This document shows, piece by piece, positions 24,290 to 28,992 of a stretch of DNA of 31,684 bases; the first letter of the stretch is position 1, and each line of letters opens with the position of its first letter. The notes beneath the pieces were generated by a model. The model was not told the DNA's origin. It did no database searches and saw nothing but the letters and a program-made list of their open reading frames with translations. The position numbers were made by a program, and so were the translations under genes. The DNA is from Campylobacter sp. (GTDB lineage Bacteria > Campylobacterota > Campylobacteria > Campylobacterales > Campylobacteraceae). The stretch lies in the NCBI GenBank assembly GCA_024680445.1, contig JAILCJ010000091.1, positions 1-31,684 on the forward strand, given 5' to 3'.

Positions 24290-25339
24290 GTGCAAACAAA
24301 TGAAAAATTTGGCGAGAGCAAAAGTATAATTTTAGCATGTCCTCTTGATGTGGCTATGCATACAGAAATTCATAAAAATTTATCCTATTACGGCTTTGAA
24401 GTTATAGATCTTTCAAAAGATTTTTCTAAATATTCAAATTTGATTTCACATTTAAAAGTAAAACTTAAAAAATTTTTTGACAAAAACGCCAAGGAAAAAT
24501 ACCAAAAACAACGCGCGCTTAAATACATGCAAGAAAAACTAAAAGCCTATGATAAGGTGGATTATGTTTTTTGCATACTTGCCCATAGATACGATGAAAA
24601 AATTTTAGATTTTTTAAAAAGCAAGTGCAAAAATACTCTCATAAACTACCAATACGACGGACTTGAAAGATACCCTAAAATTTTTGATTATATTACCAAA
24701 TTTGATAGATTTTTCATCTTCAATCCAAGCGATAAAAAATACATGCAAAGCTATCCAAACATCTTACCGACTACGAATTTTTTCTTTGATTATAAAAGCG
24801 AAAACTCACAAATCAAATTTGATTTATATTTTATTGGCAAGGATAATGATTCAAGAAAAAATTTGATTATAAAATTTGCTAAATACATAAAGCAACAAGC
24901 TTTAAGTTCAAATTTGATAATTTGTGCCAATACAGCAAAAAATTTACAAAAACTCATCCAAAGTTACGACTGTGAAAATATCAAATTTATCACCCAAACC
25001 ATATCCTACGAACAAAATTTAAAGTTCGCAAAAGAAGCAAAAGTCTTAGTCGATTTTGTCATAGACGCACACAAAGGCCTGTCATTTCGCACTTTTGAAG
25101 CACTTGGTTTTGATAAAAAACTCATCACCACAAACAAAACTATCAAATTTTATGACTTTTATCACCCAAACAATATTTTCATACTTGATAATAATTTCGA
25201 TGAGATAAACGACTTTTTGCAAAAACCTTACATCATAAACGAAAAAATGAAGCAAAAATACAGCTTTGGCAACTGGATAAGATATATCCTAGACATCAAG
25301 CCGCACGAGCAAATAAACTTAGCTAATATAAATTTTTAA
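24290..25339 (+). CDS. putative GT-B-like glycosyltransferase, unassigned
   Basis: 349 residues from GTG 24290, with AAGG about eight bases upstream, 17 bp after ttcA. No signal peptide or membrane span is seen. The middle (FDLYFIGKDNDSRKNLI) and the C-terminal part (GLSFRTFEALGFDKKLITTN, then PNNIFIL) resemble the second half of GT-B glycosyltransferases, where the Glu of RTFEALG would contact the sugar nucleotide. The N-terminal half looks like a degenerate Rossmann domain. Such proteins often act in surface glycan synthesis, but no glycan genes are nearby. The gene is lysine-, asparagine- and isoleucine-rich and contains four CAAATTTG octamers. Not recognised as a named gene; function inferred from weak patterns. 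Confidence 0.5.
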   Translation: MQTNEKFGESKSIILACPLDVAMHTEIHKNLSYYGFEVIDLSKDFSKYSNLISHLKVKLKKFFDKNAKEKYQKQRALKYMQEKLKAYDKVDYVFCILAHRYDEKILDFLKSKCKNTLINYQYDGLERYPKIFDYITKFDRFFIFNPSDKKYMQSYPNILPTTNFFFDYKSENSQIKFDLYFIGKDNDSRKNLIIKFAKYIKQQALSSNLIICANTAKNLQKLIQSYDCENIKFITQTISYEQNLKFAKEAKVLVDFVIDAHKGLSFRTFEALGFDKKLITTNKTIKFYDFYHPNNIFILDNNFDEINDFLQKPYIINEKMKQKYSFGNWIRYILDIKPHEQINLANINF

Positions 25340-26780: not shown

Positions 26781-27752
26781 TTACCTTTGGTGTTTTTTGG
26801 ATTTTGAATAAAACTTTCTTTTGTCTTCATACATTTTAGAATCTGCTTCTCTTAGCATCTTAGAAATGCTAAATTTATCGCTATTATTATGAACATAGCC
26901 CATAGCGAGATGAATATCGCAAGAGTCCAAAAAAGCCTGTAATTTCGCTATCATCTCATTAAATTCATCTTCGCTCTTGCCTTTTACAAACACGACGAAT
27001 TCATCACCGCCCATTCTATACACATTATCCTTGCCAAAAACCCTTGATAAAGCATTTGCACTATCCAAAATCAGCTTGTCTCCGGCTTTGTGGCCTTTCG
27101 TGTCGTTTGCGACTTTGAGCCCGTTTATATCGCACATCATGATATTTATGGATGTTTCTTGCGGATCGAAACTCTTTTTAATCAAATCAAAAGCGTGTCT
27201 ATTTTTGACCCCTGTGAGCTGGTCTATAAAGGTCATTTTTTGGATTTTATTAAGAGCGTCCCTATTTGCTATCATAATAGACAGCACATAAGACAGAGTT
27301 GAAAGTATGGCAGCGACATCCTCCATGTTATGCACAGGCGGATTATCCACGCCATAAAAACCTATATATTTGCCATTTAATTCAAGCGGGCCAGTTACTA
27401 GGGTGCGAATCCCTTGTGGTTCTAAATAAGCATGCATCTTTGGCGCTACATTTTTATACTCGTCCATATCGTAGATTATCAAGGTTTTATTAGCATCGTA
27501 TTCTTTATACCAAAGCTCGCAAACCTCGTATGGGACGTTTTGGAGATTGTCTTTTTGCGGAGAAACGCCTTTGTTGCACCACTCATAGGTATTGTTAAAA
27601 TACTTGCCGTCGATTTCTTCAAATATATAAGACCTATCGGCTTCTAACGTTTTTGCTAGGTATTCAAGCACATTATCTATGATATTTTCATGCTTATCTA
27701 TCATAGTGGCGTATTTAAGTATATTTGTAAGAAATTCTTCTCTGTTGATCAT
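26781..27752 (-). CDS. GAF-GGDEF protein, probable diguanylate cyclase
   Basis: 323 residues. A GAF sensor domain covers about 15-160, with TGPLELNGKYIGFYGVDNP. A GGDEF domain follows from about 170 (FIDQLTGVKNRHAFD), with MCDINGLKVANDTKGHKAGD and an intact GGDEF at 248-252. This suggests synthesis of cyclic di-GMP from two GTP under control of a small ligand bound by the GAF domain. The four residues where the inhibitory RxxD site normally lies read FGKD (239-242), so product inhibition through that site is unlikely. No membrane segment. AGGTAAAA lies before ATG 27752. It is transcribed alone, next to chemotaxis genes. Confidence 0.88.
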   Translation of the reverse strand: MINREEFLTNILKYATMIDKHENIIDNVLEYLAKTLEADRSYIFEEIDGKYFNNTYEWCNKGVSPQKDNLQNVPYEVCELWYKEYDANKTLIIYDMDEYKNVAPKMHAYLEPQGIRTLVTGPLELNGKYIGFYGVDNPPVHNMEDVAAILSTLSYVLSIMIANRDALNKIQKMTFIDQLTGVKNRHAFDLIKKSFDPQETSINIMMCDINGLKVANDTKGHKAGDKLILDSANALSRVFGKDNVYRMGGDEFVVFVKGKSEDEFNEMIAKLQAFLDSCDIHLAMGYVHNNSDKFSISKMLREADSKMYEDKRKFYSKSKKHQR

Positions 27753-27849
27753 TTTTACCTACTTAAACGGATTTTTGGCTGGCTATTTTGCAAGACTCTT
27801 AGCGGTTTAACAAGAGATTTCGCAAGCTAGAAAGCCCAAATTCACACTA

Positions 27850-27979
27850 TTTTACTTCGCTTTGTCCGTGAATTTTAGACAAATACAAGGGAATTTTCTC
27901 TTTTTATGCCTTTAAATTTACTTAAGCGGTGCTTAGCATAACCCCTTGTGCTTGTAGCTACAAACGTAGCGAAGTAAAA
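27850..27979 (-). ncRNA. candidate structured RNA or leader element upstream of the GGDEF gene
   Basis: The outer arms TTTTACTTCGCT (27850-27861) and AGCGAAGTAAAA (27968-27979) are a perfect 12-bp inverted repeat. Inside are three branches. Branch A is TTTGTC/GACAAA (27861-27866 with 27878-27883). Branch B is a long arm made of ACAAGGG/CCCTTGT (27885-27891 with 27943-27949), TATGC/GCATA (27905-27909 with 27936-27940) and TAAGC/GCTTA (27923-27927 with 27931-27935). Branch C is the palindrome TTGTAGCTACAA (27952-27963). Very few bases lie between branches. On the minus strand a TATAAA box (27986-27991) would start transcription at about the outer arm and run into the GGDEF gene. Strand and function are inferred; it could instead be a small palindromic repeat element. 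It matches no RNA family I recognise. Confidence 0.35.
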
Positions 27980-28057
27980 AAATACTTTATAATTTCATGA
28001 AGTTTTTTTGAAATTCAAGGAAGTTGCATATACCTATTTTTCATCGGTACAATTACA

Positions 28058-28084
28058 GTTAAAAACTCTTTAAAAGTTTTTAAC
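28058..28084. other. 10-bp perfect hairpin downstream of cheR
   Basis: GTTAAAAACT and AGTTTTTAAC flank a 7-base loop (CTTTAAA). It lies about 75 bp past the cheR stop and might terminate the cheB-cheR transcript, though no T-run follows on either strand. Confidence 0.35.
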
Positions 28085-28158
28085 TTGTCTTGAACCAAAT
28101 CAAATTTGAAAAAAATCCACAGGGTAAATAAAATCAAATTTGAACTAAAAATATTTTT

Positions 28159-28992
28159 TTACATCTCAATTTTTTCATAAAAAGTTGTTATGTGGTTGAA
28201 TTTTTTTTCAAACAATGGAGTATAAGGCACGATATCGGCATGTCCGACATAAACTCTGCCGTAAGGATTTAAAAGTTTGTGTAGTCTTTCTATGCATTTT
28301 AAACGAAATTCTTCATCAAAATATATCATCATATTTCGAGAAACAATTAAATCAAATTTACCAAGTCTATAAATCGCATCATCAAAAATATTGCAAATTC
28401 TAAAATCGCATTTGGCTAAAATTTCACTTCTTATCTGAAATTTATCGACTATTTTATAAAAAAATCTGCTTATTTGAAAGTTATTTAACCTATGCAAACT
28501 TCTTTCTTTATAAATGCCACTGTTGCACTGCGAAATAACCTGAGAATTTATATCTATGCCTACGATTTCAAGGCTGGCTGGATCTATGCCCCTTTCGTGA
28601 GCGAGCATAGCGATAGAATAAACCTCTTCTCCGCTAGAACATGGGGCACAAAGCACCCTAGCACCGCCCATATCGGTTATGTCAGTAACTATTTCTTTAA
28701 GTTGGGCAAGTTCTCGGTAAAAATAAGTCTCATTGACAGTTATGATATTTAAAATTTCTTGCTTTGTATTTGAATCGCAATGAAGTTTAGAATCAAGTTC
28801 GCCAAAGGTATTTATGCCATTGCTTTTAGCATAAGCACCGAGTCTACGCATAATAATATCGCGTTTTGGAGCGATATCGACACCGCAAATTTTTTTAATA
28901 CTTTCTATGAGTTCATCAAAATTTTTGTTATCGCTTGGTAATGGTGTATTGTTTACAAAATCGATTGGAGTTTCGTCACTGTGAAACATCAT
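28159..28992 (-). CDS. cheR: chemotaxis protein methyltransferase CheR
   Basis: 277 residues. An N-terminal helical domain is followed by the SAM-dependent methyltransferase domain from about residue 100. That domain carries NETYFYRE, CAPCSSGEEVYSIAML, the acidic EIVGIDINSQVISQC and FDLIVSRNMMIYFDEE. It methylates glutamates on chemoreceptors such as the one encoded nearby. The first of two ATGs lies inside cheB, overlapping it by 17 bp, so the two are translationally coupled. Confidence 0.94.
   Translation of the reverse strand: MMFHSDETPIDFVNNTPLPSDNKNFDELIESIKKICGVDIAPKRDIIMRRLGAYAKSNGINTFGELDSKLHCDSNTKQEILNIITVNETYFYRELAQLKEIVTDITDMGGARVLCAPCSSGEEVYSIAMLAHERGIDPASLEIVGIDINSQVISQCNSGIYKERSLHRLNNFQISRFFYKIVDKFQIRSEILAKCDFRICNIFDDAIYRLGKFDLIVSRNMMIYFDEEFRLKCIERLHKLLNPYGRVYVGHADIVPYTPLFEKKFNHITTFYEKIEM

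What the first reader, a model, noticed from the sequence alone, without database searches (positions are those of the whole stretch)
27850..27979. Compact nested inverted repeats that could fold into a branched RNA upstream of a GGDEF gene
Seen directly: a perfect 12-bp outer inverted repeat encloses three further paired regions (6 bp; 7+5+5 bp; a 12-bp palindrome), nested without crossing and with few unpaired bases between branches. Several stems contain G and C, so AT-richness alone is a poor explanation. A minus-strand TATAAA box would start transcription at the outer arm, making it a leader of about 230 nt for the GAF-GGDEF gene. It could be a riboswitch-like leader, an independent small RNA, or a short palindromic mobile repeat. 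I recognise no known family.
Basis: partly seen in the sequence, partly recalled or inferred. Interest (0 to 1): 0.7.

Follow-up and report, generated by a model that had tools for sequence, protein, structure and literature searches.

The report
Decayed transposon riddled with tiny repeats
The branched structure is most likely not a gene-control RNA but the shrunken remains of a jumping gene into which several roughly 30-letter repeats had inserted, two of them in opposite directions so that their ends pair; the tiny repeats themselves are the more surprising part.

Summary
The nested inverted repeats are real and fold better than shuffled sequence on both strands. They are not a riboswitch or dedicated leader RNA. 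The gap 27762-28096 is an internally deleted, decayed IS1595-family insertion sequence (MITE-like). Three other copies in the genome share its internal join and a full-length decayed copy exists. The 12-bp outer stem is two inverted copies of a roughly 31-nt dispersed repeat nested in the IS; the middle arm comes from the transposase 3' end. The full-length copy carries the repeat at both deletion breakpoints, so the MITE probably arose by deletion between direct repeats. Four related copies do not share the full fold, and covariation does not exceed shuffles. Most novel is the repeat family: 22-34-nt units, found nested in each other, inserted after TT at 8 of 11 chosen sites in IS1595 copies of several species, without visible target duplication, at the same nucleotides in host copies far more diverged than the inserts. 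No Y1 (RAYT-type) transposase was found in 48 genomes of the genus. How the units move is unknown.

The parts
27762..28096 (-). Decayed, internally deleted IS1595-family element (MITE-like) filling most of the cheR-GGDEF gap
   Evidence: Alignment to an intact IS and to own-genome copies; tblastn of 27869-27946 to the IS1595 transposase E 3.4e-5; copies elsewhere in the genome
28076..28096 (-). Left terminal inverted repeat of the IS (GGTTCAAGACAAGTTAAAAAC; intact IS: GGCTCAAGATAAGTTAAAAAC)
27980..28075 (-). IS left-end region, including the degenerate start of the transposase gene
27946..27979 (-). Small repeat A (TACTTCGCTACGTTTGTAGCTACAAGCACAA, preceded by TTT), sitting at the internal deletion join; gives one outer arm (27968-27979) and the 12-bp palindrome
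   Evidence: family members
27891..27945 (-). Fragment of the transposase 3' end (GYAKHRLSKFKGIKKEN... in the intact gene); forms most of the middle arm of the fold
27850..27890 (+). Small repeat B, inverted relative to A; gives the other outer arm (27850-27861) and a 6-bp hairpin; its 3' boundary is uncertain
   Evidence: absent at this place in copies C139 and C37
27777..27795 (+). Probable decayed third small repeat, at the IS position where other copies carry a 22-32-nt insert (site 720)
   Evidence: weakest assignment
27762..27776 (-). Decayed right end of the IS (AAAAATCCGTTTAAG); the terminal TTATCTTGAGCC is not recognisable; 9 bp separate it from the GGDEF start codon at 27752

Best explanation
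27762-28096 is a dead, non-coding relic of an IS1595-family insertion sequence. Shown: it has the IS left end, then a small repeat, then the transposase 3' end and a decayed right end; other copies in the same genome share the internal join; a full-length decayed copy carries the small repeat, in direct orientation, at both breakpoints. Inferred: an ancestral IS copy collected several small repeats, recombination or slippage between two direct repeats removed about 450 bp of IS sequence, and the short product was spread as a MITE by a transposase supplied in trans. A further small repeat, inserted in the opposite direction, then created the 12-bp outer inverted repeat. The branched fold is a by-product of these inverted repeats in DNA, not a selected RNA.
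For: Own-genome copies: 8 other matches with the 151-bp query and 11 other stretches on 10 contigs with the whole element (its 13 rows include the window itself and one self-inverted match). An intact relative, L030:966-1667, is an IS1595 transposase (PF12762 E 1.8e-27, NF033547 165 bits); two near-identical intact copies (99.7%) show terminal repeats and, read by eye, an 8- and a 9-bp duplication. Join: the left flank of one small repeat and the right flank of a later one of copy C37 are joined in the window, C112 and C139 copies; C80 has the same join with more changes, and C133 is a further deletion derivative with another join. C139 and C37 lack repeat B, so their outer stem cannot form.
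Against: The right terminal repeat and a target duplication cannot be recognised in the window copy, so its own arrival by transposition is not shown. The copies are old (70-89% identity), so the order of events is inferred. The window's pairs do exceed versions slid by 1-3 columns (86% against 42-50% paired), which is expected because the structure was taken from one of the rows, but it is not evidence against an RNA. In C80 the two arms carry matching T/A changes relative to the window (read by eye); its arm A was outside the alignment counted. The relic could still serve the downstream gene as promoter or leader.
Confidence: 0.92

Rival explanations
1. Structured leader (riboswitch-like) of the GAF-GGDEF gene, folding as a four-way junction and sensing a ligand such as a nucleotide.
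For: Strong fold (z -3.72); it lies directly upstream of a signalling gene on the same strand.
Against: Equal fold on the other strand; no Rfam family at threshold; dispersed copies; four related copies fold differently, one keeping the outer stem; pair counts within shuffles (86.0% against 84.9% paired, 74 of 500 shuffles as high); the GGDEF gene has no match at E<=1e-40 in 47 other genomes of the genus, so no orthologous leader was available to compare.
Confidence: 0.03
2. The relic has been co-opted: IS-derived sequence now supplies the promoter or 5' UTR of the GGDEF gene, whatever its origin (does not exclude the best explanation).
For: The IS end lies 9 bp before the start codon and the GGDEF gene has no close match in the genus sample.
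Against: No sigma-70-like promoter on the minus strand in 27700-28200 by a simple consensus scan; no expression data.
Confidence: 0.2
3. An independent small RNA encoded by the element.
For: Compact fold.
Against: No terminator-like site in 27700-28200, no conserved fold among five copies, no Rfam family at threshold.
Confidence: 0.03

Closest known systems
IS1595 family insertion sequences and their MITEs
   Same: Transposase family by two profile libraries; terminal repeats GGCTCAAGATAAGTTAA / TTAACTTATCTTGAGCC and an 8-9-bp duplication around two intact relatives; short non-coding derivatives in several copies.
   Different: The window copy has no recognisable right terminal repeat; the internal deletion runs between nested small repeats, and the copies carry further inserts.
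Small dispersed repeats (SDR) of Nostoc-type cyanobacteria (Elhai et al. 2008; recalled, only its title phrase was met as a search hit inside other papers)
   Same: Very short units (22-34 nt here), dispersed, nested in other mobile elements and in each other.
   Different: Different phylum; sequences, target preference and hairpin content were not compared with the original paper, which was not read.
REP / REPIN elements with RAYT (Y1) transposases
   Same: Short repeats with hairpin potential (passages of PMC3116915 and PMC3733652).
   Different: No Y1_Tnp (PF01797) in 48 of 48 genomes of the genus; many units sit inside transposase genes rather than between genes.
Double-hairpin elements of mitochondrial DNA (search listing only; features recalled)
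   Same: Tiny units invading other sequence, with two small hairpins drawable.
   Different: Single units here are mostly not more stable than shuffles.

Membership tests
Riboswitch or other Rfam-type structured RNA | Match to a curated covariance model | tested here: not met
   best sub-threshold match MIR6027, 17.6 of 95 bits
Riboswitch or other Rfam-type structured RNA | Covariation supporting the fold in homologues | tested here: not met
   Five copies: all five measures within shuffles, although above slid versions; different folds. Small sample.
Riboswitch or other Rfam-type structured RNA | Conserved association with one kind of downstream gene | tested here: not met
   Five own-genome copies lie beside other genes, judged by eye from ORF translations
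IS1595-derived element | Sequence from an IS1595 transposase gene | tested here: met
IS1595-derived element | Both terminal inverted repeats | tested here: not met
   Left present, right not recognisable in the window copy; copy C112 shows both, degenerate
IS1595-derived element | 8-bp target duplication | tested here: not met
   8 and 9 bp around two intact relatives; none recognisable at the window copy
MITE | Several non-coding copies with one shared internal deletion | tested here: met
   Window, C112, C139, and C80 with more changes
REP/REPIN (for the nested small repeats) | RAYT (Y1) transposase in the genome | tested here: not met
   0 of 48 genomes; control rings in 5 of 14 known genomes
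REP/REPIN (for the nested small repeats) | Extragenic location | tested here: not met
   Many units interrupt transposase reading frames
Double-hairpin element (for the nested small repeats) | Two stable hairpins per unit | tested here: inconclusive
   z from +0.39 to -2.25 over six units
Cyanobacterial SDR (for the nested small repeats) | Sequence or target rule of the published SDR families | not tested
   Original paper not read; comparison rests on recall

The most novel reading that the evidence does not exclude
These bacteria carry a family of 22-34-nt mobile elements that invade diverged copies of the same transposon again and again at exactly the same nucleotides, 3' of T-runs, without target duplication and without a RAYT, as if homing; deletions between them turn the transposon into MITEs.
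Probability: 0.35. Interest if true: 0.72.

Novelty: new variant of a known kind. Interest (0 to 1): 0.45.

Why it matters
For the locus as given, it removes a false riboswitch candidate: a strong, multi-branched fold upstream of a signalling gene can be made by nested mobile repeats. Beyond that, the small repeats give a natural experiment. Dozens of IS1595 copies (47 distinct rows) serve as filled and empty sites, so the target rule, relative age and effect of elements of about 30 nt can be read directly, and a route from IS to MITE (deletion between nested direct repeats) can be seen. What moves such tiny units, when no Y1 transposase was found, is an open question.

Tried and rejected
Riboswitch and Rfam families: nothing at threshold. 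Plasmid collection: no match with the gap. Covariation in an orthologous gap: not possible, because the GGDEF gene has no counterpart at E<=1e-40 in the other 47 genomes of the genus; a scan of named genome contigs gave seven loci, 30-36% identical over the GGDEF part, in unrelated bacteria. The cheR side: 46 of 48 genomes have the gene at E<=1e-30; 24 of 24 fetched loci from other genomes show no IS or MITE match in up to 1200 bp downstream, but gene order differs, so this is not a strict empty site. RAYT-driven mobility of the small repeats: rejected for this genus sample, as no Y1_Tnp was found; a passage of PMC4945800 names IS605/IS607-family elements in another Campylobacter species, so the wider group may hold such enzymes. 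The idea that all small inserts are tolerated (skipped or spliced out): for the 23-nt insert at IS site 299, three orthologous copies (L016, L020, L073) differ by 3-5 silent against 9-10 replacement changes and one has a stop, close to neutral, so that insert probably kills the gene; the fourth copy, L013, compared with the others gives dN/dS 0.08-0.15, which does not fit this simply. Strong hairpins in single units: mostly not beyond shuffles. Co-conversion around the insert at site 255: flanking identity is 0.88-0.93 within about 60 bp downstream and 15 bp upstream, against 0.78-0.90 in the other bins, nine rows: weak. T-run test: 8 of 11 sites have TT directly 5' in the empty reference against 12.7% of positions (binomial P 8e-6). 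I chose the 11 sites and their orientation; sites 24, 177, 179, 255, 489, 686, 711 and 719 were left out as not assigned to a repeat family or doubtful, and 298, 317 and 652 as the same places as 299, 337 and 653.

Full report
Observation. The outer arms are 27850-27861 and 27968-27979. Folded as RNA, the minus strand gives a four-way structure of -39.9 kcal/mol, z -3.72, and the plus strand z -3.88; none of 200 shuffles did as well on either strand. No Rfam family reaches its threshold. The equal strength on both strands was the first hint of a DNA repeat rather than an RNA.

Dispersed copies. The 151-bp stretch has eight other matches in its own genome, at 71-89% identity, and the whole element has eleven other matching stretches on ten contigs, at 70-86%. 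In the genus, 16 of 48 genomes, the window's own included, hold a match. In several of them the central part is coding: it is the 3' end of a transposase, 233 aa where intact, that both Pfam and NCBIfam place in the IS1595 family. Transposase matches occur in 24 of 48 genomes.

Anatomy of the gap. Aligned with an intact IS and with copies in the same genome, the gap reads, on the minus strand: the IS left end (28096 downwards, GGTTCAAGACAAGTTAAAAAC); the start of the IS up to AAAGTAT; a small repeat (A, 27946-27979); the transposase 3' end (27891-27945); a second small repeat in the opposite orientation (B, 27850-27890); more of the 3' end; probably a third, decayed small repeat (27777-27795); and a decayed right end that stops 9 bp before the GGDEF start codon. 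About 450 bp of the IS are missing (IS positions of the flanking inserts). The outer 12-bp stem is therefore A pairing with B. The palindrome TTGTAGCTACAA is inside A, the middle arm is IS sequence closed by bases of A and B, and the last hairpin is inside B.

How it was made. Copy C37 is full length but decayed. It carries small repeats after AAAGTATTTT and before GGGCTATGCC, in the same orientation. The window, C112 and C139 copies join the left flank of the first to the right flank of the later one, with a single repeat in between; C80 shows the same join with further changes, and C133 has another join. Deletion between direct repeats explains this in one step. C139 and C37 have no repeat B, so the outer stem cannot form in them; C112 keeps the outer stem but folds otherwise inside. 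Over five copies, the window's pairs are formed in 86.0% of cells against 84.9% in shuffles, and none of the five measures is exceptional; versions slid by 1-3 columns pair in 42-50%, as expected because the structure comes from one of the rows. Five copies in the genome lie beside genes of other kinds, judged by eye from ORF translations without a family search. I conclude that the structure is a by-product of repeat insertion. Whether the GGDEF gene now uses any of it cannot be told: a simple scan shows no sigma-70-like promoter on that strand, and the gene has no counterpart at E<=1e-40 in 47 other genomes of the genus.

The small repeats. With up to three mismatches, the 31-nt unit occurs at 25 sites in 8 of 48 genomes, and a 23-nt unit (CTCAAAGAGAGTGCAAGCACAAG, searched with a leading TT) at 39 sites in 13 of 48; the same patterns read backwards occur nowhere in these genomes. 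A 28-nt core was found in 9 of 347 genomes of the class, two of them outside the genus but in the same family. Of 112 loci aligned to the intact IS, 60 scored well enough to read inserts; these loci overlap, and one search counts 47 distinct rows. Units of 22-34 nt sit at recurring positions, and some longer inserts are small units nested in small units: 62 nt at site 277, 45-46 nt at 299, 52 nt at 37. In the orientation of the unit, 8 of 11 chosen sites have TT directly 5' in the empty reference, against 12.7% of positions. No target duplication is visible.

Age of the inserts. At five site and length classes (255 with 34 nt, 255 with 27 nt, 299, 576, 720), the inserts of different IS copies are on average 91-98% identical while third codon positions of the same copies are 66-73% identical (10, 6, 7, 3 and 7 copies). 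So either the inserts arrived more than once at the same nucleotide, or they spread by very local conversion, or their sequence is constrained. Presence and absence of the site-255 insert are interspersed in both main clades of a tree of 35 IS rows, whose inner forks are mostly weakly supported (18 of 32 open). Flanks near that insert are only slightly more alike than elsewhere. I regard repeated, site-faithful insertion as the most interesting reading but not as proven.

Comparison with known kinds. The large element is a MITE-like IS1595 derivative. The small units resemble, by size and habit, the small dispersed repeats described in cyanobacteria (recalled; original not read) and REP elements (passages of PMC3116915 and PMC3733652). 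No Y1 transposase was found in the 48 genomes, and many units lie inside genes. My searches found no description of them in this genus: Campylobacter, IS1595, palindromic: 7 papers; in PMC4945800 only the passage naming IS605/IS607 and IS1595 elements was read; at least two of Campylobacter, repetitive extragenic palindromic, small palindromic repeat: 47 papers, 12 listed; IS1595, MITE, Campylobacter: 1 paper, on Paracoccus; Campylobacter concisus, dispersed repeats: 0; at least two of Campylobacter, miniature inverted-repeat transposable, palindromic elements: 25 papers, 10 listed. Apart from that passage only titles and abstract starts were seen, and only open-licence papers are held, so this is not proof of novelty.

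Side observation. The insert at IS site 255 occurs in 27-nt and 34-nt forms, just before the first catalytic Asp (position recalled from the DDE family). Of 15 pattern hits of the 34-nt form, 13 lie in or at the break of IS1595 transposase matches and 2 lie 76 and 218 bp from one. The 34-nt form ends in CTT TGA, where a +1 shift, as in the RF2 gene (recalled), would restore the frame; the 27-nt form holds an in-frame TAG, and its four variants differ only at third codon positions. Carriers have dN/dS of 0.04-0.20 among themselves, against 0.06-0.15 among intact copies, including the close trio L097, L098 and L100 (0.12-0.17). A recoded transposase is possible; recent repeated insertion explains much of the same data. 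A search for IS1595 family with frameshift and transposase gave 14 papers, 8 listed, of which only titles and abstract starts were seen.

Noticed in passing
L100, L101, L098 and other IS1595 copies, IS site 255: A 34-nt insert ending in CTT TGA (RF2-like +1 shift site, recalled) or a 27-nt insert with an in-frame TAG precedes the catalytic Asp codon; carriers show low dN/dS (0.04-0.20), so transposase recoding is conceivable.
   Followed up: partly
window 26781-27752: The GAF-GGDEF gene has no match at E<=1e-40 in 47 other genomes of the genus; the nearest named relatives found are 30-36% identical, in unrelated bacteria. Possibly acquired.
   Followed up: partly
G320 contig 1, 761944-762267 (L206): Four copies of the small repeat in a short array, 81-132 bp apart, in another genus of the same family.
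   Followed up: no
L037, L049, L052 around 1501: In genome G033 (five small-repeat sites) at least three of them lie at the centre of a larger inverted repeat (TTAAGGGAGAAGGGG... / ...CCCCTTCTCCCTTAA), another dispersed family.
   Followed up: no
L040, L175, L195, L198 near 1400-1530: 23-nt units sit inside other small-repeat-like sequence (GCAGCT[...]GCGAGGCAAAGC and similar), suggesting layered arrays.
   Followed up: no
window 24290-25339: A 349-aa ORF without any Pfam match at E 0.001.
   Followed up: no
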